Assembly (NCBI GenBank): GCA_905221615.1
Contig: CAJNDT010003046.1
Coordinates: 431,088-495,087 of the forward strand
DNA length: 64,000 bases
Direction: 5' to 3'
DNA from: Symbiodinium sp. CCMP2592
Lineage: Eukaryota > Sar > Dinophyceae > Suessiales > Symbiodiniaceae
The position numbers were made by a program, and so were the translations under genes. Shown piece after piece: positions 36,750 to 61,851 of the stretch. Within the stretch, counting starts at the first letter, position 1. The number at the start of each line of letters is the position of its first letter. The notes beneath the pieces were generated by a model. That model ran no database searches. It worked only from the letters and a program-made list of their open reading frames with translations, and was not told the origin of the DNA.

Positions 36750-37848
36750 CTAGCTGGCAGGCTTCAACAAGTTGGTCAGCTCTGCTACAGACTCAATGAT
36801 AAAGTCGGGCCCAGCTGCCTCCAGCTTCTCGCGAGGTTGCGTGCCGGTGAGCACCGAAACTGTCCAGGCCTTGGCATTCTTGCCCTCCTCGACGTCAACT
36901 TTCGTGTCGCCAATCTTCACCACCCTCTCCGGGCTCTCCACTCCACAGCTCTTCCTATACTGAACTTAGATCCCCAGAAAAATGACAATATTTAGCTGCT
37001 TCTTGGGGATTATAGTGACCAAAGATAAAAAAAAAAACTTCTAAGTACCCCTAAGCTTCATGGCTGCGTGGATCATGATGGGGTCGGGCCTGCCAGCCCC
37101 CAGATTGGCCGAGGAGAAGAAGCCGTCCACAGACCAGCCCAAGTTCTTCACAATGCTTTCCACAACATGCCTCGGCTTACTTAAAGGAACTCAGGGGACT
37201 TAGTAATTAGGGTTATAAATAGGGTAGCTATACTTCTAACTCCTTATCACCCTAAATAACCTGACTTACTAAGTCCCCTGATCCACCAAGTCAGGTTTAG
37301 GGTTTCGGGCTTGGCCTTGGGGTCTAGGGGTTTCTTCCAGTATCCCCTTAACAATAAGGGCGACCCTTGTTCCGACTCTTCGTTTTAATAAAATAAGGAG
37401 ACTCTAGCCATGAAAAAAGCAAAAGCCGTACTACCGGGAGACCTAGATGCTCGGGGAATCCTGAACCCACACAAACCTTGATGCCCCGTCCTCTCAGCTC
37501 CTGGAAAAGAGAGGAGGTTCCCTCAATCTCGCTGTTGATACGACAGCTGAGCTTCTCCAGCTCTGCTTCGAAGGTCTTATAGACCAGGTCAACCTCAGCT
37601 TGGTCGATCGCTTCACTTTCCACACCTCTTGTGGAGCTCATGAGCAGCTTTAAGGCTTCCTTCTTCTCGTAGCCACGTACTTCGTTAGCTTTCGCGAACT
37701 CGACCTCCGTTCCGTCGTAGGCCTTCAAGGTGGCCCGGAAGGCCGCGATGACCAGTGGCTCACCATCAACAAGGTCGTTCACGGTGGTGCCGGCCATATC
37801 GAAGACCACCAGTTCCACGTCGGGCGGCAAGGCCCGCGATTCTGCCAT
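36750..37848 (-). CDS. Phosphonatase-like HAD hydrolase, three exons, 238 aa
   Basis: Exons 37848-37451, 37170-37057 and 36954-36750 join in frame to 717 nt (238 residues plus stop), the size expected of the family. HAD motif I is VVFDMAGTTV near the N-terminus; Asp-Met-Ala-Gly-Thr-Thr is the signature of phosphonatase-like HADs. Motif II is VCVGSGFP, the motif III region is LGAGRPDP, and motif IV is VVKIGDTKVDVEEG with its GDTxxD acidic pair. The fold cleaves phospho- or phosphono-substrates using the motif I Asp and Mg2+. The exact substrate is unknown, and true phosphonoacetaldehyde hydrolase activity is not shown. Both introns are GC-AG: 37450-37171 and 37056-36955. The ATG at 37848 is preceded by an in-frame stop. 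No targeting leader is seen. The USP gene follows on the same strand. Confidence 0.93.
36955..37056 (-). mobile_element. Introner (family G) that is exactly intron 2 of the HAD gene
   Basis: The intron starts GCTTAGGGGTACTTAG and ends GTTCAGTATAG|G. Its arms (cttagaag... / ...ctaagttcag; ggggat / atcccc) form a hairpin. Splicing joins HAAMK to KSCGVESPERV. Confidence 0.9.
37171..37450 (-). mobile_element. HAD intron 1 with embedded family C element
   Basis: GC...AG|G intron of 280 nt. A family C hairpin occupies about 37181-37293; the rest is TTTAGGG-like and unique sequence. GAGCAT at the donor and GAGGCAT at the acceptor form a short flanking direct repeat. Splicing gives SGFPEHVVESIVKNLGW. 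Confidence 0.88.
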
Positions 37849-37859
37849 CGCTCCGAATC

Positions 37860-38190
37860 TTCTTGTCTCAGCCCTAAGTACACCTGCGAGAGGTAGTGGA
37901 ATCTACCGGAAGCATCCGGGCGACTAGTTGCAAGTCTGACGCTAGCTTCTAGAGTGAATGGCTCACCGCTGCTTGATCCTGGACAGACATGCTCGGCTGG
38001 CGATGAAACAAACTCACGAAATTTCGACGCGATCCGAGGTAGGCGCCCGCCGGTCCCGAAGGGGTTGCTGGTATTGAGCTCCTGCCAAAGCCGTTTTTTC
38101 GAAGGCTCCGATGCCCACCAACATGACCTCCTAAGCCGTCTGAGATCCTCAGAACACTCAGACCCCCAAACCACCTGGTGCACCCCAAAG
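37860..38190 (-). other. Region upstream of the HAD gene, coding status undecided
   Basis: Two minus frames are open, one of about 134 codons overlapping the HAD start in another frame and one of about 79 codons. Both are Ser/Arg-rich and unassigned. It may be a leader plus the end of an upstream gene. Confidence 0.35.
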
Positions 38191-38546
38191 CCCTAAAACC
38201 CTCTGAGACCAGGCCGCGTCCTCAGCATATTTCCCCGTCAGAAAGTACGCGCTGATGGGTTCGATGTGGCTGGCATGTCAAGTTTTGCTCAGGATTTAGG
38301 GGCTTTGTTGAAAAGGGTTTAGGGGTTGGGGTTTGGGGTTTGGGGTTGGGTTGAAAGGGATTTCGAGCTCGTCGTTTAAAGGCTTTGGGTATAGAGTTTA
38401 TGGTAACGTATCAATCATGGTTTGAGGAAGAGGTTCATTGTTTGCGCTGTAGGGTATCGAATGTCTCTCTACTACCCATCTATGCACAATGAGCAAACAG
38501 TCGTGCTTCCTGTGCTCACGAGAATGCGTAAAAATCCTCCACCTGC

Positions 38547-38744
38547 TCCTCAACTTGGGATCGGATAGTAGATGGGTAGTTCTCTAAATCAGAGTCCCCT
38601 TTCAGGTCCCGTCCCGAAAATAGGCTGCACAGCGGGATCCTAATTTTTAGAACAAGCCTTGTAGATAGTACCCTCATAGAAACCCCTGTAGGTCCCGTTA
38701 AGGAACCCGAAGAAGGGGTCCTAACTTAGAGAACTACCCAGATG
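38547..38744. mobile_element. Inverted-repeat element, AACTACCCATCT type
   Basis: gatgggtagttctctaaatc / gtcctaacttagagaactacccagatggg. A related hairpin lies at 42490-42590 and a degraded one at 35890-35962. A further arm, ctactacccatctatg, is at 38469. Confidence 0.7.
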
Positions 38745-38852
38745 GGAGTTTCCGATCATGGGGGACCCTAATGTAGTTCCCCAAATAGTAGGACCGTTAA
38801 TATAAGCACCCCAAAATAAGGTACCTCTAATTTTCGAAAACTCCCAGATGTT
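38745..38852. mobile_element. Introner-like element, family B
   Basis: Ends gggagtttccgatcatgggg / aattttcgaaaactccca. It directly follows the element ending at 38744. Confidence 0.8.
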
Positions 38853-38939
38853 GTTGTTGGGGCCGCTCCGATCCCGCACCAGGAAGGTCCGATCCAAGCT
38901 TCTCAGTCCGACCCGACGATGTCCCTGAACCCTCACCTC

Positions 38940-39175
38940 GCAACCTAAAGCCGGCTAAGGGTTGAGGGTTGAGGGTTCGGGGCTTCGGGTTGAGGGCTTA
39001 GCGTTCAGGGCTTCGGGTTGAGGGCTCAGGGTTTCGGGTTGAGGGTCTAGGGTTCAACCTTGAGGGTCTAGGGTTTCGGGTTGAGGGTTTAGGGTTTCGG
39101 GTTGAGGGTTTAGGGTCTGGGGCTGAGGGTTTAGGGTTGAGTGTTCTGGGTTGAGGGTTTTCCTTGGTTTAGCGA
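38940..39175. repeat. GGGTTGAGGGTTTAGGGTTTC variant array
   Basis: Telomere-like units with GA and TC substitutions in a roughly 21-bp higher-order pattern. Confidence 0.8.
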
Positions 39176-39247
39176 GCACTTGAACCCCTTGCGCAAACCG
39201 CGCCATGCGCGCCCAAACTCTTGACCGCAAGATCGAAGTCCGAAGGC

Positions 39248-39425
39248 TCTAATATAGGGGCCTTAATAAGTAGAATAGAGGTTCCTTTAAAGGGATCCTT
39301 AAAGGGTTACTATAAGGGATCTATAAGGGTACTATAGTATAGGGGCCTTAATAAGTAGAATAGGGTTTTGGGGCCCATTATACTATAATTATAGTAAGGA
39401 GTAATTCTTTAAACCCCTATATTAA
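39248..39425. mobile_element. Introner-like element, family I
   Basis: ctaatataggggccttaata ... taaacccctatattaa, with an internal duplication of ataggggccttaataagtag at about 39340. Confidence 0.75.
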
Positions 39426-40199
39426 GCCCAACACCCCGAAACCGCCTTAACCCTTGAGACTTAACCCTCAGATCATACACAGGTACAAGCACAGATCCAA
39501 ATGCTTATTACAAACATATAGATATCTTCACATGCACCTACAGCTACGTTTAGGGTTTAGGGTTAAGGGTTTAGGGTTTAGGGTTCAGGGTTCAGGGTTT
39601 AGGGTTTAGGGTTTAGGGTTTAGGCTGCTTTGAACCGGGGCACCTCAAGCACTGAAGCCCGGCGTTCATGAAGCAGGTGTTGCCCATGTTCACCAAGCCC
39701 ACCAAGCCACCTTCGCAGAGAGCATGTAGGCTTAGTAGGATCTGATGTCGGCGCCTTAGATATTACCTATACGATTTTGGGGTTCCTTACTTTAATTATA
39801 GTATAGGTATACCCCGAAACCCTATTCTAATTATTAAGGCCCCTATATTCGTTTAGGGCTTACGGTTTAGGGCTTAGGCAATGCATGGGCACATTCCACC
39901 GGCACCTCTGGATTTGGAGATGTGAACTTGGTTCTTGCCCAGCCTGTCAGGAAACAGCACGCACCAATCCCAGAAGCTACACTACTTTTCTAGTATGGTA
40001 TCTTATAACTTCTTATCTTCTCGTATCTAATACTGTAACAATGACGATGGTATAGCCGTATACATATTGTATATGGTACTATGTTATGTTCCGTTTCGAT
40101 TTATTGTGGCTTTCGGCATCGAGGGCCGGACGATCGCTTCCACTGCTCCGCAGGTGTCCATGGCACCTGGGAAAAAAGAGAAACCGCTCTTTACCCATA

Positions 40200-40395
40200 G
40201 GCCCCAAAGTAGTTCCTTTTTGGGATTACCTTCTAGGATTCTATATATGAACCCCAAAAAGGAACTACTTTGGGGCCTTAGGGTAGCCATTGCCCAAAGG
40301 CTCCGAAGTATATAGTTTCTTTTTGTGGTTCATACTTGGGATCCCATAAGGTAATCCCCAAACAGGGAGGATTATGGAGCCTCTGGGGAAAGACC
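40200..40395. mobile_element. Two nested inverted-repeat elements
   Basis: gccccaaagtagttcctttt / aaaaaggaactactttgggg (40200-40276) is followed by ggctccgaagtatatagttt ... ggaggattatggagcctctg (about 40299-40386), a weaker second hairpin. No coding sequence seen. Confidence 0.7.
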
Positions 40396-40959
40396 GCTAC
40401 GGATCATATCTTGAAGTGTAATGTGTGATAATGTGCTGTATTTTGGCCATGAAGGACCCCTACTGAAATAGAATGTACTTTAAAATACGATTATATGCCA
40501 TGCAATTTAATATGATATATAACTAACTAGTATGTACTATAGTACAATATAACTAATGTATTATACTTATTACAGTACCATAATGTAATGTAGCGTAGGA
40601 AGTATCGGAGGCCTCGCAAGGTGGGATGACGGTAGGTGGGATTAGGGATCCCTTAAATAAGGACTCTTATTTGGGGCTATCCCACCTACCTTCATCCTAC
40701 CTTTTGAGGCCCCCGAAAGTAGTGAATGCAAACGCTGGGACGCCCCGTTTTCTAGACCTAAGAGTAAAGTAGGAATAAAAAGGGTGCCCTTTTTGGTTTA
40801 AAGGGGCTTATAAGGGAACCGAAACCCTCAAAAAGGGAATAAGGCCCTACTCTGGGTCCTAGTTTTCGGTGCTAAAGAGGCCCTTGCCAGATCCTGTGGC
40901 GCTGCGCCACAAGTGAAAATCCTCGGTACCTGCACCGAAGTTCAGGGAATTTCGGGTTT

Positions 40960-41190
40960 AGGAGTTCAGGTTCAGGGTTTGGTGTTTGGGGTTGAGGGCT
41001 CAGGGTTTCGGGTTTAGGATTTAAAGTTTAGGGTATGGTGCTTGGGGTTTGGGGTTGAGGGCTCAGGGTTTCGGGTTTAGGATTTAAAGTTTAGGGTATG
41101 GTGCTTGGGGTTTGGGGTTGAGGGTTCAGGGTTTCGGGTCCTGGGTTTAGGGGTTGTCGGTTCAGGGTTTGGGGTTTAGGGGCTTCGATG
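40960..41190. repeat. Tandem repeat, about 60-65 bp, telomere-derived
   Basis: The unit gtttaggatttaaagtttag, ggtatggtgcttggggtttg, gggttgagggctcaggg occurs about three times. Confidence 0.85.
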
Positions 41191-41289
41191 AGGGTTCCTA
41201 GACGGGTTCCATAAATCGGGGCCTTAATAAAAAAATGAATCAGGAGTCGCAGTCCGTGGATGTCGGATGTCGAGGTGACCCCCCCCCCG

Positions 41290-41375
41290 CCCCCCGCCCC
41301 AACAAACACAACAGAGCCTGCCATCCGCTCCGTGAGCTGGAGCTCTGCCTGTGTCATCTTTTCGAGACTGGAATG
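41290..41375 (-). CDS. Possible coiled-coil exon
   Basis: The minus frame SLEKMTQAELQLTERMAGSV is heptad-like and abuts a family A element (41372-41478). Gene membership unknown. Confidence 0.4.
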
Positions 41376-41478
41376 GGTAGTTGTCAAAATTAAGGTCCCT
41401 TTTTGGGCAATTACCCTAAATAACAGGTGCCGTATTAGAAGAGGGACCCAGGGCGGGACCATAATTTTGACAACCACT
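41372..41478. mobile_element. Introner-like element, family A
   Basis: Ends tgggtagttgtcaaaattaa / ataattttgacaaccactgg. Confidence 0.85.
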
Positions 41479-41547
41479 GGAAGGAGGCTCAAAGAGGAAC
41501 CGACTTCTGCCACAGTGTGCGCTTGCGGCAGCCGCTAGGACAGTTCT

Positions 41548-41670
41548 GCTTAAAGGATCAGGGGACTTAGTAAGTCGGGATACAAATAGGGTAACTATAC
41601 TTATAATTACTTAAAACCCCAATTGGGGTACTTATAACCTTACTTACTAAGTCCCCTGATCCTCCAAGCG
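41548..41670. mobile_element. Introner-like element, family C
   Basis: gcttaaaggatcaggggact / gtcccctgatcctccaagc, with inner taacc arms. Confidence 0.85.
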
Positions 41671-41767
41671 GGCTAGGGCGCAGGCTGCTGATTTGTTTGA
41701 GGCCTTGGAGAGCACAGCGTGTGAAGAGTAGCGTCCCAGACATCTTGCTCATCCTGACGGTGTTGCC

Positions 41768-41878
41768 TAAAGAGCCCAATGTCCCTCACTTAAGGCATAG
41801 AGCTTAAATCATAATATGAAGCCCCGAATGATTCAAGGTATATTCCTTAATTAAGAAGTATTGGGCTATCTGGGTGGT
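41768..41878. mobile_element. Introner-like element, family E
   Basis: cctaaagagcccaatgtccc / gaagtattgggctatctggg, with inner taaggcatagag / attccttaattaa. Confidence 0.75.
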
Positions 41879-42177
41879 CCAAGGACCGGACGCTTCTGCT
41901 GATGCGGCATGACCCATACGTTGAGGGCCTGAGACCGACACCGGCAACAGTTCGAGAAAAGGGCTTTTAGGGTTTAGGGTTGAGAGAGAAAAGGGCTGCT
42001 CCCTTCCCAAAGCTTCCAAGATTCCTTAATTGAGGAATATACCTGAAAATAGAGCAGGAGCCCTAGTATGGTTTAAGGCAAATTCCTCAATTGACGGATT
42101 TTGGAAGGTCTGGCTTGTCACCGAGAACGCCACTTGGCGGGTGAAGCCTGAAGCAATAGCTCACATTTGCTTCATTT

Positions 42178-42432
42178 TCACATACTCGCTACCACCTCAA
42201 AGTTTTGAGCCACATCCCAATTGAGACACGCGCGGCTCTGCTCCGCACACAGCCAGACAAGAGAGGAGTGCAGCAACCGAACACACAACTGGCAACCGTC
42301 ATTTTCAGCAGAATATAGAATGAGCTTTGTCAGGCTAAACAGCAGGTCGTACACCAGCATGCTGGTGCAGCAGAGTCCTGCTAGTTCTCCATGTAAACTG
42401 TCTGTGTCTTTTATGGAGCTGTCGTGGTTTTA
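42178..42432 (-). CDS. Unknown helical exon
   Basis: The minus frame is open for about 84 codons after a TAA: DTDSLHGELAGLCCTSMLVY, DLLFSLTKLILYSAENDGCQ, RLLHSSLVWLCAEQSRACL, then NWDVAQNFEVVASM and a stop. Leu/Cys-rich and helical, strongly coding-like, but no family is recognised. It could be the C-terminal exon of a gene continuing from higher coordinates. Confidence 0.45.
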
Positions 42433-42679
42433 ATCATTAGACTTAGGCTTGTCTGTAAATTGTAGTTGCTACACTAGACTACTGCTAAACCTATGGGTTG
42501 TTCTCTAACTTAGGGTCCCTTCTAGGGTCCGAAAAGGCTGACATACTATCCTGGGGACTTAGAAAGGTGAGCCTAAGTTAGAGAACTACTAACCCCTCTG
42601 TCTGTGTGTCAATGGAACTGTCGACCGGAGGTGCAGCTCACACAGCCGGAACCTGGCGAGACACAGTAGTTGAGCTATA

Positions 42680-42784
42680 TGGGTGGTTGCCAAAATTAGG
42701 GTCCCTTTTTGGGTACCCTAAATATTAGGTGCCGTATTATATTAGGGACCCAAAAAGGGACCATAATTTTGAAAACCACCCATG
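42680..42784. mobile_element. Introner-like element, family A
   Basis: tatgggtggttgccaaaatt / ccataattttgaaaaccacc; internal taaatattaggtgccgtatt matches other copies. Confidence 0.9.
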
Positions 42785-43256
42785 TGTGTTTAGGGCTTTA
42801 AGGCTCTAGGGGTTGAGGGGCTTGCGGGTTTTTTGAAGCCTCCTTGTCCTGAGCGGCTTCCTATTCATTCGAGGTCCATACTGAGGTCCACTGTTCTCCC
42901 AAACTTCCCTAAACCCAAACCTTAAACCCCAAACCCCTACACCCTAAAACCTAAACCTCAAGTCGCTACTAAGCACTAAACCCTAAACCCCTGAACCACA
43001 AACCGCAAACCCCTCAATCCAAAACCTCCAACTAAACCCTAAACCCTATGACCAAGTAGCATCGAAACACGCCGGAAGTGCGAGCGGATCCTTCTCCAAT
43101 GCTAAGACTGGCGAGGGGCACCGCAGTTCCTGGTTTGGGGTTTCGGGTTTATGGGTTGGGGTTCGGGGGTTTAGGGTCTCGGGCTTAGGGGTTTGCAGGG
43201 TTTAGGGGTTTAGATTTCAGGGGTTTAGGGACTTAGGGTTTCGGATTTAGGGTCGG

Positions 43257-43420
43257 CATTCAGGGGTCAAGGAAGACGGATGCGCCTGCAATCCCGGTTT
43301 CGGGCAAACTGATGGTCTCCGCACGCGCCGCATCTCCAGTCCCCTTCCCAGTAGTCCTCTCACAGCACGGAACTGCACGAAAAGGCTCCCTCTTCGCAAC
43401 ATCCCAGATCCCAAGCAGAC
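43257..43420 (-). CDS. Possible exon, unknown
   Basis: The minus frame LGIWDVAKREPFRAVPCCER, TTGKGTGDAARAETISLPET, then GIAGASVFLDP and a stop is coding-like and is bounded upstream by a family B element at 43422. Other minus frames are also partly open. Confidence 0.35.
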
Positions 43421-43421
43421 A

Positions 43422-43531
43422 TGGGGGTTTCCGAAAATAGGGGACCCCAATATAGTATCCTAAACAGTAGGATCCTTATTATAAGGGCTCCAAAATATGG
43501 TACCCCTTATTTTCGGAAACTTCCACATAGG
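43422..43531. mobile_element. Introner-like element, family B
   Basis: gggggtttccgaaaataggg / ccccttattttcggaaactt; internal acagtaggatccttattata. Confidence 0.85.
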
Positions 43532-43689
43532 AACAGTCCTGGCTTTTGGCAGCAGCAACAGCAGCAGGTTTTCTTTCTTGCTGCAACGAGTGGCCCTGCT
43601 GATACAAAGACATCAGCGAGGCCATTTGCCGCCTTGGCCACGAGACTACTGACGGGCACAGTCTCCAACGCATGCGCACGCAGAGATAG

Positions 43690-44215
43690 AGAAACATAGA
43701 GAGAGAGAGAGAGAACGAGAGTACGATACCTACACACAAAGATAAAGATTCGATTATGTATATGTATACAAACATATGTATATATATATATATACACATA
43801 TGTGTGTGTACGTGCATACTGCATCTGTACGTGTACATCAACATTTGCGTTTTCTAAACCCAAACCCCTTTCTTGAAAAACAAAGGCGCTGCTGATACGG
43901 AAGCACCAGGAAAGCTATTTGCTGCCAGCGATCGGACTACCGCCACGAATGAATGAACACACACACACACACACACGCTCACGTACATACATGAATATAT
44001 GGATAAATGTATATACACATATATAGGTGTGTTGGTGTGTTTTAGAAAGGAATAAAATACATGCGCATATGCAACACATGAATACATCTACATAAGTGCA
44101 TGTATATATATATATATACATATGTGTGTGTTTGTTATTATTTTGCATAAACTACACATACCTGTGCGAGTATGTATACGCACACAGATACACACATACA
44201 TATGTGGGTGTTTAG
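43690..44215. repeat. Microsatellite cluster (GAGA, TATA, ACAC, TGTG)
   Basis: agagagagag at 43698-43714, tatatata and acacacac runs around 43780, 43960 and 44105. Between them, 43875-43950 is a diverged copy of 43565-43665. Confidence 0.85.
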
Positions 44216-44224
44216 ATCTGATAT

Positions 44225-44575
44225 GATGCTCGCATGTGTTATACTGTAGTATGCTATGATATACTGCGGTATGCTATGGCATTATAGTGCAGAATTCTAT
44301 TTTGAAATATAGGGCACATTGTAGCATGGTCTGGTACTGTGTGGTATGGCACATGGTGTAGCATACCATGGTACAGTATCGTGTAGTGTAATGAAACGGA
44401 ATCTAGTAGTATAATCCAGCCTAGTCTTGTCTATGCTTTACAAGACTAGACTATACTGCACTATACTAGACTATCTTATGCCGCATTGTTTTGTACTATC
44501 TGTACTGTACTGCAATATAGCGTAATATACTCTACTATGTATACTTTGCTATACCATGCTATGCTGTACCATGCG
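44225..44575. repeat. TATAG/TATAC-rich degenerate microsatellite
   Basis: agtatgctatgatatactg-type sequence on the left switches to ctatactgcactatactaga on the right, similar to 15.7-16.1 kb. Confidence 0.75.
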
Positions 44576-44639
44576 ACATGCAAAGGGATACATGTCTACT
44601 TTACACCTTTCCACCTGTATTCACAAATCTATCTCACAC

Positions 44640-47600
44640 AAGAACCGACCATACCCAGGTGACAGCAAACTGTTGCCGAGTCGCTGGACCCAGAAATTCT
44701 GGTACGCTGTTTCTGCCGCAGCAGCCTCTAGAGCCACTAAGTGCCATGCAAGCTTCGACTAGGGGACTAGGGTTCTACTGCATAGGGTATGGCCCTAAAC
44801 CCTTATCCGAAACTCCAGGAACGTCTCTTCACTGATGCACGATCTGCATCTACAGATCGATCGATCAAGCAAGAACCGCAGGCTTTGGGAAGGAAATCAG
44901 CTTGTTTCTAAGCACATATACGACGGTTCACCATGGTATGCTAGAACAGATTCATAATATGCGACAATCGTGTACGATATTCCCTGCCTGCTCTGCAGCT
45001 CGTGCCTCTTCGGGCGAGAGCGCCTTGACAAGCCATGGCAGAATAGCCCGCGAAAGACTGCGCAACATCACGTCACCCACTAGCACCCAGAGATCCCAAT
45101 ACCCCTTAATTGAAGAATATACCTTAAATCAGAAGAGGAATCTATAAATTAAGGTATATTCCCTAATTAAGGGGTATTGGGTTCTCTGGGCAAGCGATTA
45201 AGGTCCCTGCAACGGGAGGAGCAGGAGCACTCGCTGGCTGCGAGGGCTGCGAGGGCTGCGCAGGCTGCGAAGGCTCTGCCGGAGACGGAGCCGCCTCCTT
45301 TCCCAGAATCCAAGGGTAAAAGGAGGGACCCTTAATGAGGACCCTTAGGTCTATACCCTTAATATAGCCATTACATACCCATTATATTGCCCATTATAGG
45401 GTAGGGGTCCCCATTAAGGGTCCCTCCTTTTCCCCTTTCCCAGAAGGCCAGGAACTTTAAAAGTCGCATGTTCTATAGAATAGTGTAAAATAATCGACGA
45501 TATGAACATCTGTACTTTAACATGCCATAGTATACTATACGGTACTAGACTATACTGCACTATACTAGACTATAGTAAGTAGAGTATACTCTCGCATAGT
45601 ATGATACTATACTGTATTTGACCGTACTCCTTCCAAGACAGTCTTCACTAGGCATTTAGTTCAAGTAACCAGGGAGCAACAAGTATACATTTTTATTTCA
45701 CAATGAATCCTTTAAGTAAAAGTATTACAGTATGGTTCTCCAAAGCCCAATGCAAGGTGCCTCTGCCGGCTCTGCTTTCACGTCCTCCTTGGGGCCGAAG
45801 AGACCAGCCGCCTGAAATCAAAAGGCGCTTTTGACAGGGCTTCTTTGTTTTAACTGCAATAGCCCCGTTTCTCCAAAGACAGCTTTCTCAATCTGAGCGT
45901 GCACTCTGTGGTGCTCCACTCCTGCCCTCTACTCGGGTTTGGGCTTTAGGGTTTAGGGTTTGGGGTTTCGGGTTCAGGGTTCAGGGATTAGGGTTTAGGG
46001 CTTTAAGGTTTGAGGTTTAGGGACCAAGCTCCCGAAGCCCGGGCCTCTTTGCCGAGCAAGGAAGCTGCCTCGGTAAGGTAAGGGCCAGTACTCAGAGATA
46101 TAGTATAAGACAGTATAGGATAGGCATAGTAATACGATACAGTATAATATAGTTGTAGTAATATAAAGTACAGTAACCCTAGCACAGTATAGTGTAGAAT
46201 TATACCGCAGTACAGTAAAGCAAAGCACCGTATCGCATGGTATGGTGCAGCACAGTATAGTATACAGTACAGTATACTGCAGTCGAACCCTAATCCCTAA
46301 ACCCAAAACTAGTATAGCATAGTACAGTTATCGAGGCTCAGACCAGGTTGGCCAGGGATGACTGGACGTTGCTGCGTTTGCCTGAGTTGAAGCAACCGGC
46401 AAGCTGAGGAGCATACAAAAGCATATTATAGTATATGGCAGTATATCATGGTATACTATAGTATGCTATAGATAGAATACTATAGTATACTATAGTACAA
46501 TAAAAAAATATTCTCGTATCTTCTAGTATATTATGGTGTATATTCACCTATAGTATAGTACAGTAGAGTATGCTGTGCCCTAGGGTTCAGGGTGCTCTGC
46601 CCCCCTCTGCTCTTGCCAAGACACTTTCAAGTTCGGGGGAGATGGGAAAAGCCTTGGCGGCCTCTGGACCTCAGCACGGTTTAGGGGTTCAGGGTTTAGG
46701 TTCAGTGTTTAGGGTTCAGGGTTTCGGGTTTAGGGTTCACGGTGTAAAGTTTAGGGTTTAGGGTTTAGAGTGTAGGGCTTAGGGTTTAGGGTTTAGCGTT
46801 CAGGGTTTAGGGTTTAGGGAAGTCGCAGGCTTAGGGTTTGGGGTTTTTGGTTTAGGGGTGCTCACGTTCCCGGACCTTCCAAAATCCCTTCATCAAGGAA
46901 TATACCTTAAATCAAAATAGGAGTTCTGCTTTAGCTTAATTAAGGTATAGAAAAGTTCCTTCATTAAGGGATTTTGGAAGGTCTGGGTTCACTGAGTGCT
47001 CCGAGCGCCGTGCTTATTGAACTTACTGGGGACGGGGTCGGTTGGGTGGGCGCTGGCGGGGGTGGCGCTGGAGCGGCAGATCCTGCGCTGCTTCGTTCAA
47101 GCCAGGTAACCCAAACCCGATATTATATACTAGGGTATACGATGATAAGCTGTAATATGATATAATACACTATAAAATAACATACTATAGTCTACTATAA
47201 AAAATATAGCACTTTCATGTGCTGTAGAAAAGTATCAGCACACTTTCTGCCTGGAGCAGTCGGCGCACTGGGCATCGACGCTCCTCGAGTATGGTTGCCA
47301 CATGGAGGAACAGACAGAGCATCACAGCATTCAGAAGCTTACCTTTGGTTAGTAGGGAATGGAGGAATGGGGTACAACTATAACTACTTTTACTACCATA
47401 TTACTGCCATATTACTTTCATATTACTACCATATAACTACTCTTACTACCATTCTTCCATTCCCTAACCAAAGGTCAGGAAGAAGCCTGGAGCTGCGAGG
47501 GACAAGGATGGCAAAGGCGACAGGCTTGGCATCGGTGGCAAACCTCGCAGAGGTCAAGGATTCGTGACTTTCCTTCGCCATGGCAGTAAGGACCCTCACG

Positions 47601-53360: not shown

Positions 53361-53837
53361 TCAAGGGTTCCCTTACAGGGTTCCTTGTGGGTCCTTTCAT
53401 CGGTCCCTTGAAAGGTTTAGGGTTTATAGGGTTTATAGGATTTATGGGGTTTATAGGGTTTACAGGGTTCAGGGTAGCTTCTTGAAGGGCTCCTGTCAAG
53501 GAGTCCTTTAAAGGGCTCCGGGAACGGATTCCGATAAAGGGTTCCTTTAAGAGCACTGTGAGGGGGCTATGATTTAGGGTTTCGGGTTTTGTAGGGGCCT
53601 TAGCAAGTAGATTCCGGCTTTGCAGGGGCCTAAACCCTTAAAGTGCCCTCAGAGCCCCTTTACACTAGTTCAGGGTTTAGGGTTTAGGGGTTCTTGGAAT
53701 ACCGGTTCCTTTAAGGGTTCCTCTAACCTTTAAAGGCTTTCATAAGGGTTATTCGAGCTATGTCCCTTTTAGCAGAGGCCTGAACAGTTCGCCGCGGCCC
53801 CGGCCGAAACCTTTCCTTAAAACGAGGTTTATAGGGG

Positions 53838-53950
53838 TTGCCCAGAGAGCCCAATACCCCTTAATTAAGGAATGTAGCTTAAATCATAATATGAATCCCC
53901 TGATAATTCAAGTCATACTCCTTAATTAAGGGGTATTGGGCTCTCTGGGT
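53838..53950. mobile_element. Introner-like element, family E
   Basis: gcccagagagcccaataccc / ggggtattgggctctctggg, a nearly perfect 30-bp terminal inverted repeat with inner ttaattaagg. Confidence 0.92.
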
Positions 53951-53954
53951 GGGT

Positions 53955-54225
53955 TGTGTGAACTTTGCCCTTTTGAAGTCGCAGCCACAAGAGATGCAAA
54001 CAAGGCAGCCACCATCGTTTGCTGCGCTGCCACCCTTGGCACAAATAGAACAATGCAAACAGCCGCTTGGGAATGCTGGATCTTCAGCCAAGTTGCTGCG
54101 ATTGCGTTGGAAACGGCTGCATACCAGGTGTGTGAGGCACCCAAGTGGTGTTGAAGGGATCGACCTGTCGTATCCTGTCAGGACGGCACCGCAGCTCAGG
54201 GAGCCCGCAGAAGTGTTTAAACCCT
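53955..54225 (-). CDS. Candidate Cys-rich exon
   Basis: One minus frame is open across the interval and contains CLTHLVC, CLHCSICAKGG and CLVCISCGCDFKRAK, a zinc-finger-like spacing of cysteines. Another minus frame and two plus frames are also open, so assignment rests only on the cysteine pattern and strand. It lies between a family E and a family F element. Confidence 0.35.
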
Positions 54226-54267
54226 GAACGCTAAACCACCTAAACCCGAAACCCCTATAGTCGAATC

Positions 54268-54363
54268 CAAAAAGTTGGACCATCATTATCCTCATGCCCT
54301 TAAGGTAAGGTATAGGGAATGCCAGCACTAATCCTCCTTGAACCATGTTCCAACTTTCTGGGG
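54268..54363. mobile_element. Introner-like element, family F
   Basis: tccaaaaagttggaccatca / catgttccaactttctgggg. Confidence 0.75.
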
Positions 54364-54399
54364 TTCACTGTAACCTCTTTGGGGGCACATGGTTTCAAC

Positions 54400-54680
54400 C
54401 TTGAAAAAACCCTAAACCCTAAACCCTAAACCCTAAACCCCCCAAACCCTAAACCCTAAACCCTAAACCCCCCAGAACCCCGGAGCGAAGCTGCGCGTCT
54501 CCTCCCCAGCAACATTGCCGTGGGATCACGGGCACTGCCCAGGCCACCACGCATGAGGACCTCTGACTTAGGGCGTTTAGGGAAAAGGGCTTTAGGGTTT
54601 AGGGTTTAGGGTTTGGGGTTTAGGGTTTACGGCTTTAGGGTTTAGGGTTTAGGGCTTTAGGGTTTAGGGTTTTTGAGGAA
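54400..54680. repeat. Telomere-like arrays in both orientations
   Basis: CCCTAAA array at 54405-54475 and TTTAGGG array at 54575-54680, separated by about 100 bp of unique DNA; together an inverted pair. Confidence 0.85.
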
Positions 54681-55039
54681 AAGGGAGTTCTGGCTTAAGG
54701 CCTAGTTGCTACTTATTATGATGACAAGTATCATCATTCTTGTTCTTGTTACATTCTCATTTCTACTAAAACGGCTTAGGGTTTACCACGATGGCTATGA
54801 TTATCATCAACTGTTGTTTGTGTGCTTTTCATTTCTACTACGGTAGTTAGGGTTTAGTGTTCAGGAGTCGCCCTGTCTGGAGCACGAGTGTCGCGCTGCC
54901 GGTTTAGGATTTAGGGCTTAGAGTTGAGGGGTTTGGGGTTTAGAGTTCGGGGTGTAGGGTTTAGAGTTTGGGGTTTAGGGTTTTTTAAACGTGTAATGCA
55001 CCACTCCTTTGACTCCGGAGTTTAGGGTTTAGGTTGCAG

Positions 55040-55500
55040 GCAAACGGGTTTGCGCTGTCTGAGGCGTCGGCATTTGTCTGGGCCTCTTTGGGCAGGGCTC
55101 GTAGCCGAGCGGCAGCATGTGCCTTGCGAGAGCGGCGGGAAAAGAGCCCTAAAGCCTAAACCCTGAACCAGAAGGTTCTTACTGGTGCTTAAGGAAGAGT
55201 GGAGTTAGGAGTTAAAGGACTACTGTAACGCACTGTATGGGGACTATTACCCGGTCCACTCTCTCACTCCCCCTTCAGCACCAGTAAGCGTTGCAAAGAT
55301 CCACCAAGTGCACCTGGATCTGAGGATACCTCGGCAAGCACCATCTTCAAGGTAAAGGTCAGCAGGTTTTGCATTGCCAATGCAGCTGAAAGGCTGGGCC
55401 AAGAAAGTTTCCACCTCAGGATTCGCTGGCTGCTGGTTCTTCGTCTGCTCGAGATGCAACGCCACGGCCTCAAAGATGTGCGCAGAGCAGCAATGATCTT
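55040..55500 (-). CDS. Two exons of an unknown protein
   Basis: Exon 55500-~55288 reads DHCCSAHIFEAVALHLEQTK, NQQPANPEVETFLAQPFSCI, then LYLEDGACRGILRSRCTWWI. A family L element (55176-55287) follows. A second exon, about 55150-55040, reads LFSRRSRKAHAAARLRALPK then EAQTNADASDSANPF. Both are clearly coding-like; no family is recognised. Confidence 0.55.
55176..55287. mobile_element. Introner-like element, family L, between two exons
   Basis: cttactggtgcttaaggaag / cttcagcaccagtaag. Its ends abut the coding segments on both sides. Confidence 0.85.
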
Positions 55501-55551
55501 GAGGCTTTAGGGCTTAGGGTTTACGGTTTAGGGTTTACGCTTTAGGGTTTC

Positions 55552-55663
55552 TTTACTGAACTTAGACCCTTAGCAAAATTATTTTTAAAATTCTAATTTT
55601 CGCTGTTTCTTAAGGATTATCATAAACCAAAGACTAAGAATCACTTCTAAGTACACCTAAGGT
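55552..55663. mobile_element. Introner-like element, family G
   Basis: tactgaacttagacccttag ... cttctaagtacacctaag; same terminal sequences as HAD intron 2. Confidence 0.8.
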
Positions 55664-55804
55664 TTAGGCTTTAAGGCTTCTTTCAAGACCGCCCCTAATT
55701 GGGGTTATAAGTAACTATAAGTATAGTTACCTTGTTTTACAACCCTTTTTGCTAAGTAGGCTTTACGTTTTAGGGCTTCAGTTTTAAGGTTTCTTTCAAG
55801 ACCG

Positions 55805-55900
55805 CGTCCACAGGCCTGCGCAACCGACTTGTTCTGGTTGTACTGCCTTGGCACACCAGGGACTTCTCGAACCCCGATCTCGGAGAGGCTTTTGGGACAA
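55805..55900 (-). CDS. Possible exon, unknown
   Basis: The minus frame LSEIGVREVPGVPRQYNQNK followed by SVAQACG is coding-like. No domain assigned. Confidence 0.35.
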
Positions 55901-56485
55901 AAATTAAGGGTTCTTAAAGGGCTCCTTAAAGGGATCCCTAGGACTCCTTAAAGGGATCTATAGGGTTTAGGGTTTAGGGTACCTTTTACGGGGTCTATAA
56001 GGATTACGAGAAGGGCCATTATAGGGATATGGGGTCTACCTGGAGGATCAGGGAACTGAGTAAGGGTTCTTAAAGGGCTCCTTTAAGGGATCTATAGGCT
56101 CCTTAGAGGGATCTATGGGGTTTAGGGTTTAGGGTCTACTTGGAGGGGCACTGGACTTAGCAAGTAGGGTGTAGGGTTTAATTGGGCTAACTCCTTTTCG
56201 GGTATTGATAACTCTACTTATTGCCTACTTACTAAGTCCCGTGCCCCTCCAAGTATACAGTCTGGTTCTCAGTAGGGACTGGGGACTATTATACCCTAAA
56301 CCCTGAAACCCTAAACCCTATACCCTATATAGGGACTACTCTAGGGATCCGTTTCCCTAAACCCTAGCCCCTAAACTCAAAGTAGGGATTACTTTAGGGA
56401 GACCATTCCTCCATTCCCTACTTAGCACAAGACATTATAGGAATCCCTTTGGCCGACAAAACCCCTAAACCCTACAGCGAATCCC

Positions 56486-56584
56486 AGAAAGTTGGAACAT
56501 GGGTTTAGGAGGATTCGTGCTAGGATCCCTGACACTTTACCTTAAGGGCATTAGGATACTCATGTTCTAACTTTCTGGCTTCTG
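56486..56584. mobile_element. Introner-like element, family F
   Basis: cccagaaagttggaacatgg / catgttctaactttctggct. Confidence 0.85.
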
Positions 56585-56799
56585 CTATAAACCATACATC
56601 CTAGACCTGAAAAACCCTCAACCCCAAACCCCAAACCTCCCAAATCAAAAACCTTCTAAGAAACCATCTAAGGAACCCTTTGAGGAACCGTTTTCAGAAA
56701 CCCTTTTCAGAAACCCTTCTTAGGAACCCCTTTTAAGGAACCCTTTAAGGATTCCGATAAAGGAACCCCTTTAAGGAACACCCAGAAAAACTCCCTTGG

Positions 56800-56890
56800 G
56801 CCCCGCCTGGCCAGCGCCTGCACTCGCTCGAGATCCTCTGGCATGACCTTCACATCGAAGCCACTGCCTCCACCGCCTCCACCACCTTAG
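56800..56890 (-). CDS. Possible Gly-rich exon
   Basis: The minus frame GGGGGGGSGFDVKVMPEDLE followed by RVQALARRGPREFF. The Gly run followed by a charged helix looks coding. Gene unknown. Confidence 0.4.
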
Positions 56891-57224
56891 GAAATAGGAT
56901 TTAGGGTGTAGGGTTTTTAGGAAATAGGGTTTCAGGATTAAGGCTTTAGGAAGTAGGGTTTAGGGTTTAGGGCGTTTAGGAAATAGGGTTTAAGGTTTAG
57001 GGTTGTTAGGAAATGGGATTTAGGGTTTAGGGATCTTGGGAAATAAGGTTTAGGGTTCAGCGGTCCTGCGACTAGATTGGGGTTTTTGTCGGGCCTTACT
57101 TTCCGCAAGGATCAGAGGCTCAGCTTACATGTACTCAGATAGGGGGGGTAGGGTTTAGGGTCTAGGCTTCTGGGAAGGGCAGAAAAAGCAGAGAAAGAGC
57201 GCAATAGGAAGTCACCATAAGCCC

Positions 57225-57333
57225 CAAGAACCCAATACCCCTTAATTAAGGAATATACCTTAATTTCTATAGAGGCCTTCATATTATGATTTAAGGTATA
57301 TTCCTTAATGCATGGGTATTGGGATCTCTGGGA
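57225..57333. mobile_element. Introner-like element, family E
   Basis: agaacccaataccccttaat / atgggtattgggatctctgg. It ends just 3 bp before a family C copy begins. Confidence 0.85.
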
Positions 57334-57336
57334 CCC

Positions 57337-57460
57337 TACTTGAAGGCTCATGGGACTTAGTAAGTAAGGTTATAAGTAGGTTATAATTAGGATAACCCCA
57401 CTTAGGGGACTTATAACCCCAATTATAACCTACTTACTAAGTCCCATGATCCTCTAAGTA
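57337..57460. mobile_element. Introner-like element, family C
   Basis: tacttgaaggctcatgggac ... cccatgatcctctaagta; nearly identical to 13.21 and 15.47 kb. Confidence 0.92.
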
Positions 57461-57536
57461 AGCCGTCTTGTTCTGAGGTCCTCGCCAGACTTTTTCTTGG
57501 CAGGACTCCTGAGTCATCTTCGACACACAGACAGAT

Positions 57537-57650
57537 GTGGGAGTTTCCGAAAATAGGGGGACCCTAATATAGTACCCTAAATCGTAGGATCCGGAATTAC
57601 AAGGACCCCATAAGAAGGGTACCCCCCAATTTCGTAAGCTCCCATGCTTC
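57537..57650. mobile_element. Introner-like element, family B
   Basis: tgggagtttccgaaaatagg / ccaatttcgtaagctcccat. Confidence 0.8.
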
Positions 57651-58129
57651 TTTCTCATGTCTACGCAAAGAGAGAGGCCCTTCGGAGTTCACATAATATT
57701 CTCTGAAAACATATTATAGTATAATAATGTGTGGTCTAGTCGAGCTAGAGAATGTCATACCATATCATATCGTAATCTATTCTATTGCTTGATGAATGAT
57801 ATGCTATTCTACTCCATTCCGTTCTAACAGTCCCCAACATTATGTACAATTACGGCTCTTTTTTGAACAATAAGGGAGATTAGGAAACGTCCCAGATCCA
57901 TACCTCGTATTCTGTTCTATGACTCGAGGGATGAAGCCCCTGAACCCTACACCCCAAACCCCTAAAGCCCAAACCCTAAATCCGAAACCCCAAATCACGA
58001 AGTCCCATGATCCTTCAAGTAAACCCTAAAGCCTAAACCTTATAGATCCCTTTAAGGAACGCCTACGGATTCCCTTTAAGGACCCCTTTAAGGAACCCTA
58101 GCTACTACGTCCCATGATCCTTTAAGTGA

Positions 58130-58230
58130 ACCCTGAGCCGCTCCTGCTCTTGGAGACGGGCGTGCGACTCTTTCGTCGCCTCGTCCTCTCAGGCGGCCTC
58201 TCCACCCTTTCGACAGGTTTCCTGCACCAG
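58130..58230 (-). CDS. Possible coiled-coil exon
   Basis: The minus frame EDEATKESHARLQEQERLRV is a charged helix; a stop just upstream means the exon would begin near 58195. Confidence 0.35.
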
Positions 58231-58667
58231 GGTTCTTGGCTTAGGGTTTGGGGTTTAGGGTTTAGGGAAGAGGGGGGCTTTAGGTTTCGGGGTTCGGTTT
58301 GGGGGTTTGGGGTTTAGGGTTTGGGATGCAGGGATGAGGGCTTTGGGTTTAGATGGCATTGGAAGTCTGCAGAATGTAGGCTCCGTAAACGAAGGTTCTG
58401 CAACTACTACAGCGAGGGTTGCAAAGAAAACTTGAATACAGTGGCCTCAATAAATTAGAAGAGGCTTTTGCATATTGTAGAGTTATCAACCTGTAAATTA
58501 GTCAGGCTCCCACATTACACGGTGGCGGGACTATGGCGGCTCTCTAACACAAACAAGCAAGACGTCTTGCACCTACTACAAGGGCCTGAATAATTTGAAT
58601 AGGGTTTTGGGGCCCATTGTACCTTAATCATTAGGAACCCTCCCCACACAATAGTATAAGCAATTGT

Positions 58668-58770
58668 ATGGGTGGTTGACAAAATTAGGGTCCCTTCTTG
58701 GCTCCTTAATATAATACGGCACCTAGGGTACCCAAAAAGGGACCCTAATTTTTGGCGACCAACCATATGG
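58668..58770. mobile_element. Introner-like element, family A
   Basis: atgggtggttgacaaaatta / cctaatttttggcgaccaac. It lies 3' of the RS-rich exon. Confidence 0.8.
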
Positions 58771-58799
58771 GTCCCTACATTATAGGCCAATACAATGAT

Positions 58800-59160
58800 C
58801 TGTTCCTGCGCGCCTCCTGGATCGGGAGTTAGATCTCCGCCGTGGTCTTTCTCTATCTCTGGACCGCGACCGCAGCCGTAGCGACATGACCTGAAATCAT
58901 CGAGGTCTAAACCGACACCCAAGACCCCAAATACTTAAACCCCTCCGTCACCTGAGTGTCAGCTCACTACAAGCCGAACCCTTCTCGAAACTTTGTTGCC
59001 ACTTCTAGATTTCTTTCTGAAAGGGGCGCCATAATAATCACCTCCAAACCTCCTTGCTGGGCGCCCAGCGACGCTACGGGCTGGCGCAAGCCGGGCCCCC
59101 AGTGGCCCAAAGACGCGGGTTTCTAAGTCATAACTGCGCTCTCGAAGATAGCAACGGGAG
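58800..59160 (-). CDS. RS-rich exon(s), SR-type RNA-binding or splicing protein
   Basis: Exon 58889-~58800 follows a TTTCAG|G acceptor and reads MSLRLRSRSRDRERPRRR then SNSRSRRRAG, a bona fide Arg-Ser domain. The upstream segment 59160-~58985 reads FGGDYYGAPFRKKSRSGNK after an Arg/Ala stretch, consistent with a Gly/Arg linker. SR proteins drive spliceosome assembly at unusual splice sites, which fits this intron-rich genome, but no RRM domain is visible here. A segment at 59690-59590 (MMGRLNYQKDSESSSRILSG) could be an upstream exon. Gene limits unresolved. Confidence 0.5.
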
Positions 59161-59164
59161 AAAT

Positions 59165-59565
59165 AAGAACAACAGCAACAAAACATAATAGTGCAGAATA
59201 GTGACAACATCATCTTCTTCATCATAATCACCACCATCACCACCATCATAAGCGTAATAACAAGAAGAATGAAAACAACAATAAAAATGATAGTGACAGC
59301 GATACCAAGAACAATAATAGTAATGAGTAGTATCAAAAGAAACAATGACAACATTAAAACAAGAACACTAAGAATAAGAACATTAAATCAAATATTGCTA
59401 TGATAATAAGAGCAAGACGACGAAGAACAAGAACAACAACAGCAGTACGTAGTAGTAATAATAACGAGTGTACAAGAAATAAACCTAGTTATCATCATCA
59501 TGAACCCAATCACAAAACGAAGCTAATCAGCTGATCTTTATATTCACAATAGCGACAACCATAAT
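59165..59565. repeat. AAC/ATA/GAA trinucleotide-rich low-complexity DNA
   Basis: Runs such as aacaataataataatga and aagaacaacaacagcag. Open frames on both strands are low complexity. Confidence 0.75.
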
Positions 59566-60173
59566 CATGTCGCAAGTACACCTTCCTGCAGGATGAGCGA
59601 CTTGTCGTCTTGTGTTCCGGACAAAATGCGGCTGGAAGATTCGGAGTCTTTTTGGTAATTGAGCCGCCCCATCATAAGAGGGCACGATGTAGCGGCTACA
59701 GTAACATGCGTATTTAGCTTTTTGTCTGAAACCCTTGTCCTACAACCGACACGTCAAATCCCGTTCCAAGCAACTCCTTATCCACAGGTTGTCAAAACCT
59801 AAACCTGGTTCACCTTCAGGTGTGCTTCAGGACTGCTCTCCTGCGTATGATCGTGAGGATGCACGACCACGCTCCAAACCCTGAGCCCTATATCCGATCC
59901 CAGGCCACCCATGATCTTCTTCCCGCAAACAACGGCAACAACTTCTCAAAAAAACCTATTTCGCCTAGACCATGGCTTGAGGAGGACTGTTTTCTTCGCT
60001 TTGGGGTTTCCACAGTGTCGTGACCCGATATTCCGACCCTGCAACGCCTCGAAATAGAGACAACCGTGCGAGTCACCCTAATGATCCTAATGACCACGCA
60101 GGCCTTCATCTAGGTCTAAAGGAAGTCTCAGCCACTCCTCGGAACACAGCCTGCCGATTTTTGCGCGTCTGCC

Positions 60174-61851
60174 TCACAGACGCTGCAGGAAGGCCACTCT
60201 GGTCAGAACTCGAGGCAAAGCAGCTTTCAGAACGCGGAGGGCAGTACGACCTGCGCCTGCTACGATACGGTCGGAGACTGCCAGAAGGGCTCCCCAGAGT
60301 TGTACCGCGCGATAGAGAAGCACAAGAGCAAGCGTGACCCGCGCGCTCTTCGCGACCACGGAAGCCACGTCTGCGACTGAAGCGCATAGAGTAGCAAAGT
60401 CAATCCGACTCTCTGTATCCCCACGTCCGACAACTTCCAGATTGGCGGAGGTGCTCGAAGCAGACGACCTTAAGTCCTGTCTATCAGAGTGTGCCCTTGT
60501 ATCGCTCCAAGACCTGTTCCAATCAGCTCTCCCTCGCCAGGTCCTCCAACTCTTTCCCTGGAAGCCTCCACGCCTCCACTCCTTCGCTGCACTTGGCCTG
60601 GAAGTTGATTCTGATTCCTCCTTGTGAGCTTCCCACTCGAAGCCTCGCTTTTTTCCCAGCCAAGGCTGGGTGAAGTCTCGGAAGCCAGTGGGGACCGGGT
60701 TCTCTGCCCGAATCTCCTGGCAACGCTCCCGGACGACGGAAGGAAGTTGAAGGAAGAGGGAGTCGGGGAGACATCGACGGTCCTTCGAAGGACGATTCCA
60801 ATGCCATCTCTTTTCTTCAGACTTCTCGAAGACGAAGGATGCATACTTGGCAGAGAACACCTCCACACTTGGCAAGAAACACGTCTCTTCACTCACATTT
60901 GATGTGCCCCCATGCCACAGTCTGAGGTCACGGAGAATGGCGGCTCCCGCCGGCAAAGGAAAAAGCTTAGATTGCTTGTACCGGTCTGGCTCATGTCGAA
61001 AGTTCGGTGGAACGTCTTGCTGTCCGTGAATAACCTTCTTGCCTGGTACGACTCTCATGGGTCCGTTCTTTTCCGTCATCGCTTGCAGCGTGAAATTTAT
61101 GGCGATCTGGGGAGGAGCATCATCAGCACGATACCTGGGTTCTTGTCAAGGGATTTAACCTACGTGACCATGATAGGGACCTATGGTAAATAACATGGTT
61201 TCCTTCTTATGGTAACTTAAGTTAAATCCCTTAACCCCAAAACCCTTATAGAACCCTTAAAGGAACCCTTATAGACTTATAGATCCCTTAGAGACCCAGC
61301 TACTCTGGCGGCACTTGTCCAGGTCCCACATCCGCGTGCAGGGTTTGGTACTTCTCCGTCCCTGCAAGGACGAAATCGCCTCCGATCCGCCGCAACACAC
61401 AAGCGGGAGTTTGGGGGGGGGTCCTTATTACAATAAGGATTCTACTTTTTAGGGTACCTTTTCAGGGTCCCCTATTTTCGGAAACTCCCAAATCGCCTCC
61501 GCCGCCGCAAAACACAAATCCGTCCGGCAAGATCGCGTGCAGCGCGCTGAACGTGGCTTCGCATGCCAGCAGCAAAGACCATGCTTCGTGATGCAACATG
61601 TGGCCAGACAGGCTGGCAGCGCAAAAGCTATAGTGGCCAGGATCGTGGCACCACCCGATCCTTTCTGGATCTAACTCCAAGATCTGGCGCTCTGCCTGCT
61701 GGCAGCCCTTCAGCACCTCAGATGCCCTTTCATCGCTCAAAGCATTGAGAATTATGCAGAACCCTGTCTGCCGAAAGATCCTGACTGCTTCATCCAGCCA
61801 ACCATCTGCCCCGGCTACGATCGAAAAGTCTGCAATCTCCAGGGAGCTCAT
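60174..61851 (-). CDS. Phytanoyl-CoA dioxygenase-like (PhyH) protein, three exons
   Basis: PhyH proteins are Fe(II)/2-oxoglutarate oxygenases. Exons 61851-61497, 61379-61304 and 61134-60174 join in frame to 463 codons. Exon 1 has the N-terminal PhyH helix (FRQTGFCIILNALSDERASE) and ends CGGGGD. Exon 2 gives FVLAGTEKYQTLHADVGPGQ; HAD is the iron-binding HxD. Exon 3 starts YRADDAPPQIAINFTLQAM and continues IHGQQDVPP and ILRDLRLWHGGTSNVSEE, where the His of RLWHGGTSN is the likely third iron ligand and the basic residues nearby would bind 2-oxoglutarate. Intron 1 is GC-AG, intron 2 GT-AG. The ATG at 61851 is chosen; the frame stays open upstream to a TAG. About 180 residues follow the catalytic domain, including a hydrophobic stretch (VTLALVLLYRAVQLWGALLA). 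This tail may be a membrane anchor or read-through of an unrecognised intron. Substrate unknown. Confidence 0.85.
61135..61303 (-). mobile_element. PhyH intron 2, containing a family J introner
   Basis: GT...AG|G intron of 169 nt. The family J hairpin (gggttcttgtcaagggattt / aaatcccttaac, 61137-61228) ends 2 bp from the acceptor; the donor side adds atagatccc minisatellite. Splicing joins VPPE to YRADD in frame. Confidence 0.9.
61380..61496 (-). mobile_element. PhyH intron 1, a family B introner
   Basis: GC...AG|G intron of 117 nt that is essentially the family B hairpin (gggagtttccgaaaataggg on the minus strand). Both ends are flanked by ggaggcgattt, an 11-bp direct repeat, consistent with a target-site duplication. 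Confidence 0.92.

What the first reader, a model, noticed from the sequence alone, without database searches (positions are those of the whole stretch)
36955..61496. Hairpin mobile elements serve directly as spliceosomal introns (introners)
Seen: in the HAD gene (37056-36955), PhyH (61496-61380; 61303-61135) and the EH-like gene (22552-22394), the intron needed to restore frame and conserved motifs is wholly or mostly one of the repeated hairpin elements. Its ends supply the GC or GT donor and the AG acceptor. Known: introner elements cause mass intron gain in some protists, including dinoflagellates. Inferred: most of the other roughly 70 hairpins here are also introns or recent insertions of the same type.
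Basis: partly seen in the sequence, partly recalled or inferred. Interest (0 to 1): 0.92.

Follow-up and report, generated by a model that had tools for sequence, protein, structure and literature searches.

The report
Transposon insertions acting as introns
In this coral-symbiont alga, short mobile DNA elements that landed inside genes appear to be cut out of the message as introns, one splice site coming from the element and the other from the few bases copied at the landing site; this fits a known kind of element, but most of the other repeated hairpins here do not look like introns.

Summary
The window lies in a 1.1-Gb dinoflagellate genome, Symbiodinium tridacnidorum CCMP2592 by its deposited PhyH protein. 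The claim holds for some elements and fails as a rule. The HAD and EH introns are copies of one dispersed ~100-bp element (family A, CTTAGGGG...GTATAG) that leaves exact 4-bp target duplications (53 of 81 copies; 52 of 76 in a second sample). The element supplies the AG acceptor. Two exonic copies elsewhere have gap-free empty-site paralogues. PhyH intron 2, and perhaps an ankyrin-gene intron, are family C, a true hairpin with copies 95-99% identical. PhyH intron 1 differs: a family B element lies between two copies of a 28-bp exon stretch that carries both splice sites, and the deposited protein disagrees with that boundary. Families B and F have 2-bp duplications, D none; their ends are not AG and no window copy had convincing coding flanks. 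New member of a known kind (introners). No RNA data were available.

The parts
36955..37059 (-). HAD (phosphonatase-like) intron 2, GA-AG, 105 nt: left target copy GAAG 37059-37056 plus family A element 37055-36955; right target copy GAAG 36954-36951
36750..37848 (-). HAD phosphonatase-like gene: exons 37848-37451, 37170-37060, 36954-36750; intron 1 is 37450-37171
22394..22555 (-). EH-domain gene intron, GC-AG: left target copy GCTG 22555-22552 plus family A element with an internal insertion 22551-22394; right copy GCTG 22393-22390
61135..61303 (-). PhyH intron 2, GT-AG: GTAG 61303-61300 plus diverged family C element; followed by GTAT 61134-61131 (3 of 4 target bases agree)
61380..61496 (-). 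PhyH intron 1 by homology, GC-AG: contains a family B element; both splice sites lie in the duplicated exon stretch. The deposited protein implies donor 61520 instead
61490..61515 (-). left copy of the duplicated exon stretch
   Evidence: score 40 v shuffled maximum 24 in 2000
61373..61400 (-). right copy of the duplicated exon stretch
19699..19903 (-). candidate GT-AG intron in an ankyrin-repeat gene: target GTGG 19903-19900, family C-like element 19899-19699, GTGG 19698-19695.
24899..25009 (+). family C element, near-perfect hairpin, GTTTTG at 24893-24898 and 25010-25015; no exon context found
18243..18341 (-). family A copy with no coding flanks; others at 27222-27316 and 55552-55661

Best explanation
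Families A and C are non-autonomous DNA transposons with ends CT...AG that insert with a short target duplication (4 bp for A, 4 to 6 bp for C). The element's last two bases, AG, serve as the 3' splice site. When the copied target begins with GA, GC or GT, its first two bases serve as the 5' splice site. Splicing removes the element plus one target copy, so the message regains its pre-insertion sequence. Shown here from sequence: dispersed copies, exact duplications, element ends at the splice sites, protein length as in homologues, and two empty-site paralogues. Inferred: transposition by an unidentified transposase, and splicing itself. Most copies examined lie outside recognisable exons and are plain insertions. 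PhyH intron 1 is a separate case in which a duplicated exon stretch around a family B element supplies both splice sites.
For: Exact 4-bp duplications: 24 of 42 copies v 0.5 expected, 53 of 81, 52 of 76. HAD: the earlier donor removes a residue absent from the homologues. EH: 3 of 3 homologues agree and Pfam EH rises from 18.1 to 23.0 bits. L044 ankyrin 20.1 v 18.3 bits. Pfam domains run through the junction in L004, L044 and L131. Empty-site paralogues: L197 aligns to spliced L135 without a gap from 76 nt before to 18 nt after the junction; L198 to L078 from 64 before to 73 after; no family A end was found in them. G-first targets among strongly coding copies: stratified one-sided p 0.017. 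Family C: 11 of 23 copies match over 4 bases v 1.2 expected. PhyH intron 2: the spliced product matches the homologues, including a 94%-identical protein from a 1487-bp contig.
Against: No RNA evidence. The excess of G-first targets is modest: rank tests show nothing (p 0.73, 0.26), sample 2 alone gives p 0.23, and cut-offs were set after seeing the scores. Antisense coding scores are nearly as frequent as sense ones at low cut-offs, so no orientation preference is shown. L079 (target AGGA) and L020 (GG donor) score as coding but do not fit the donor rule; L161, with mismatched target copies, lies beside an IFT46-like exon. L004 and L044 domain scores are below Pfam's cut-off. Joined-flank search gave a junction-crossing paralogue for 2 of 8 loci only. 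PhyH intron 2 target copies differ at one of four bases. The deposited PhyH protein disagrees at intron 1.
Confidence: 0.85

Rival explanations
1. One reading: the G before the element and the element's first C form a GC donor (HAD 37056, EH 22552), so splicing adds one codon.
For: GC donors are accepted in dinoflagellates (PMC11453091, passages). Insertion of codons by introners is on record in other algae (PMC9860276, section 7).
Against: One residue too many against 19 HAD and 3 EH homologues; lower Pfam scores in HAD (3 of 4 families), EH and L044. It needs a target ending in G: only 10 of 100 listed G-first targets do, and L004, L131 and L135 (GAGC, GAAA, GAGA) do not.
Confidence: 0.06
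2. The copies spread as RNA by reverse splicing of an intron into new messages.
For: Proposed for fungal introners (PMC9860276, passages).
Against: Exact 4-bp target copies and many copies without coding flanks point to DNA insertion.
Confidence: 0.03
3. For PhyH intron 1, the true donor is GA at 61520, as the deposited protein implies, and eight residues were lost.
For: P0121 equals that splice through this junction. Gene prediction for this strain used full-length transcripts and allowed GA donors (PMC8045281, passages). Pfam PhyH does not discriminate, 38.0 bits both ways.
Against: All 12 other homologues aligned keep residues there, including a 94%-identical protein and S. necroappetens.
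Confidence: 0.25
4. Most of the ~70 hairpins are introns.
For: Several lie inside larger introns, such as the family D element in HAD intron 1.
Against: No convincing coding flanks in 64 window entries of families B-H; other target duplications and ends.
Confidence: 0.05

Closest known systems
Introners of Symbiodinium microadriaticum (Gozashti et al. 2022, PMC9860276; section 7 with the Fig. 2 legend read, other passages seen)
   Same: 4-bp target duplications, element carries the 3' splice site, 5' splice site taken from the target copy, same genus
Dinoflagellate introners of Roy et al. 2023 (not held; seen only as summarised in PMC11453091, passages)
   Same: Intron gain by transposable elements in dinoflagellates, many families per genome
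   Different: Families could not be compared
Amoebophrya introner elements (Farhat et al. 2021, PMC7789003, passages)
   Same: Inverted repeats, 3-5 nt direct repeats at the exon-intron borders, hairpins
   Different: There the splice motifs are highly variable; here the sites are GN-AG
Intron gain by duplication of an exon stretch containing AG|GN (recalled, no call)
   Same: PhyH intron 1: both splice sites at the same point of two exon copies
   Different: A transposon-like element lies between the copies

Membership tests
Introner (family A) | Many dispersed similar copies in one genome | tested here: met
   40 scored of 1262 and of 729 candidates; 2745 perfect 17-base starts
Introner (family A) | Element ends coincide with intron ends (give or take the target copy) | tested here: met
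   HAD and EH by homology; L004, L044, L131 by domains
Introner (family A) | Target-site duplication | tested here: met
   4 bp: 53 of 81 and 52 of 76 exact
Introner (family A) | Terminal inverted repeats | tested here: inconclusive
   By eye the two ends share 11 of 17 bases, ACTTAGAA being identical (ends); RNA fold of the HAD copy not significant
Introner (family A) | Empty sites without the element | tested here: met
   Paralogues for 2 of 8 loci searched; none for HAD
Introner (family A) | Spliced from transcripts | not testable with these tools
   No RNA reads held
S. microadriaticum introner family 1 | Sequence identity | not testable with these tools
   Sequence not held
Introner (family C) | Whole intron with AG end and target copy | tested here: inconclusive
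   PhyH intron 2 fits the homologues, target copies agree at 3 of 4 bases; ankyrin case has exact GTGG but weak coding downstream
Introner (families B, D-H) | Splice sites at the element ends between coding exons | tested here: not met
   64 window entries, none convincing (the test missed the incomplete PhyH copies, so its power is limited)

The most novel reading that the evidence does not exclude
The odd GA and GC donors of dinoflagellate introns are largely fossils of transposon target sites. Elements with CT...AG ends offer an acceptor on either strand and any target beginning with G offers a donor, so a spliceosome tolerant of GA and GC donors and transposons with AG ends expanded together. 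Donor identity would record where an element landed rather than selection for splicing strength.
Probability: 0.35. Interest if true: 0.68.

Novelty: new member of a known kind. Interest (0 to 1): 0.48.

Why it matters
It gives a base-exact account of how a transposon can become an intron without changing the protein, with empty-site paralogues in the same genome, and it makes a testable prediction about the origin of non-canonical GA and GC donors in a group with unusually intron-rich genes.

Tried and rejected
Hairpin equals intron as a rule: rejected. Families B and F show 2-bp duplications (9 of 10 and 8 of 9 copies with common ends), D none clearly (best 5 of 21 v 1.65 expected), E and G had 3 and 2 usable copies, H gave 7 of 11 v 5.0 expected. 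The ends of B, D, E and F are not AG.

HAD intron 1 as another introner: GCAT at the donor and after the acceptor and CT...AG ends, but its 5' part is not a repeat family (3 matches including itself). Left open.

HAD paralogue as an empty site: the 3 matches in the own genome are the gene's own exons.

Coding score alone: too weak, since antisense counts are close to sense ones at low cut-offs. The script's frame for L018 was one base off because its element start is shifted; read with target GTGC/GTGA the frame is open across the junction (my reading of letters). Its AAA match lies to the right of the junction only. The first PhyH splice was one base off, so the codon table trained there holds a short out-of-frame stretch; corrected but the table was not rebuilt.
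Full report
Where this is. The window is bases 431088-495087 of contig C3046 (770,560 bp) in an assembly of 1,098,105,373 bases. A protein deposited for Symbiodinium sp. CCMP2592 lies on a contig of 770,560 bp and matches the window's PhyH gene (97% identity; 100% over aligned residues). The genome paper names the strain S. tridacnidorum CCMP2592 and says gene prediction was adapted to GA donors (PMC8045281, passages). That the two contigs are the same is inferred from length and protein.

The HAD intron. The element begins CTTAGGGG and ends GTATAG. In 42 copies from the loci have the same four bases on both sides v 0.5 expected from mismatched pairs, and none has five. A profile found 84 unique full copies in the window and loci L001-L081; after dropping two window rows and an internal start in the EH copy, 53 of 81 are exact. 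In a second sample, the first 40 listed places each for G-first and T-first targets, 76 of 80 had a recognisable 3' end and 52 of 76 are exact (27 of 37 and 25 of 39). Genome-wide the perfect 17-base start occurs 2745 times, with G 667, T 1227, A 650 and C 201 as first target base and no match to the reversed control.

Which donor. At HAD the sequence is ATGAAG|CTTAGG...TATAG|GAAGAGC. None of the 20 homologues has the extra residue; 19 of them align properly there. EH gives RSRLLDQ or RSRLDQ; 3 of 3 homologues have no extra residue. Pfam scores favour the earlier donor in HAD (74.6 v 69.7, 55.4 v 51.7, 45.9 v 43.1; but 21.4 v 22.1 for PF12710), EH (23.0 v 18.1, cut-off 22) and L044 ankyrin (20.1 v 18.3, both below cut-off). 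NCBIfam PhnX-like gives 161.3 v 157.0, both below its cut-off. A retained HAD element reads HAAMKLRGT and then stops.

Other genes. Where coding lies on both sides, Pfam domains run through the junction in L004 (TSP1_spondin 85-140, junction near 126, below cut-off), L044 (Ank_2 4-40, junction 16, below cut-off) and L131 (LRR_6 46-65, junction 53, above cut-off). L135 has no Pfam match and L078 none below E 0.01, but a joined-flank search with eight loci found paralogues crossing the junction for these two and for none of L004, L018, L020, L044, L079 or L131. L197 aligns to spliced L135 without a gap from 76 nt before to 18 nt after the junction; L198 to L078 from 64 before to 73 after. No family A end was found in them. 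They are empty sites with one target copy.

Selection for G. Of copies scoring 8 or more for coding on both sides (HAD excluded), 4 of 5 in sample 1 and 2 of 2 in sample 2 are G-first, against 26 of 75 and 34 of 74 of the rest: stratified one-sided p 0.017 (0.016 and 0.024 at cut-offs 5 and 7). Rank tests show nothing (p 0.73; p 0.26) and sample 2 alone gives p 0.23 at cut-off 8. One of the strong copies, L018, was scored in a frame one base off. Donors read from exonic copies: GA in HAD, L004, L044, L131 and L135; GC in EH and L078; GT in L018. L020 (GG) and L079 (AGGA) do not fit and have no domain support; L161, with mismatched target copies, lies beside an IFT46-like exon. Sense and antisense coding scores are similar at low cut-offs, so no orientation preference is claimed.

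Family C and PhyH intron 2. The copy at 24899-25009 has non-self hits of 95-99% identity among the 40 scored candidates of 2796, and its 19-base end occurs 616 times (both ends of one copy can count). Of 23 copies read, 11 match over four bases at the ends v 1.2 expected; some extend to six (CTTTTG, CTTAAG, AAATTC, CCTAGA, GTTTTG). It folds at -58.8 kcal/mol, z -13.8. PhyH intron 2 aligns to it over 99 columns in its 3' part, starts GTAG and is followed by GTAT. The spliced protein matches the homologues there. An ankyrin gene has a related element (local score 66 v shuffled maximum 29) between exact GTGG copies at 19903-19699; the coding evidence downstream is weak.

PhyH intron 1. Its flanks share GTGTTTTGCGGCGG--CGGAGGCGATTT (score 40 v shuffled maximum 24 in 2000). 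Family B copies show a 2-bp duplication in 9 of 10, so the long repeat is not their usual target copy. By homology splicing uses the same AG|GC point in both repeats. The strain's deposited protein implies a donor at 61520 and lacks eight residues where all 12 other homologues aligned have residues. I hold the homology reading more likely, not proven.

The other hairpins. Families B-H give 64 near-full entries in the window, with some double counting. None has convincing coding flanks; the best, F at 45086-45190, scores 9.9 and 9.5 on the two strands and was not checked by homology. The test missed the incomplete PhyH copies, so it cannot exclude introns between short or unusual exons. Three of five family A copies in the window score zero.

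Known or new. Introners with 4-bp target copies, inverted repeats, an element-borne acceptor and a target-borne donor are described for S. microadriaticum (PMC9860276, section 7 read). A review gives GC and GA donors as 25-74% in Symbiodiniaceae and summarises Roy et al. 2023 (PMC11453091, passages). Amoebophrya, Prorocentrum and other Suessiales introners are on record (PMC7789003, PMC10666404, PMC11114475, PMC10522408, passages). Introner papers were searched; Roy et al. did not appear there, and I make no claim that families A or C are absent from print.

Noticed in passing
window 9064-10999 (minus strand): Exon-like stretches repeated two to three times in tandem (AEFHRLEAT.../AVKGKISKEEEN...), about 840 bp apart.
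   Followed up: no
window 7463-7464 (minus strand): A coiled-coil-like exon stretch ends exactly where a family D element begins (ATGAT|GTACTTAG), so the element could contribute most of a GT donor; the downstream exon was not established.
   Followed up: partly
window 37450-37171: HAD intron 1 (GC-AG) has GCAT at the donor and after the acceptor, and a family D element nested near its 3' end; not a repeat family.
   Followed up: partly
HAD, EH and PhyH genes: Homologues of these neighbours share contig lengths in other assemblies (363358: P0001, P0147; 337892: P0002, P0130; 830553: P0003, P0125, P0149), suggesting conserved linkage.
   Followed up: no
P0121 (deposited PhyH protein): The CCMP2592 PhyH protein is named OLA1 and lacks eight residues kept in its relatives; the gene model may be wrong at intron 1.
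   Followed up: partly
window 72-1200 and scattered: Long low-complexity Leu/Tyr/Thr-coding repeat, and CCCTAAA-like repeats at many places in the window.
   Followed up: no
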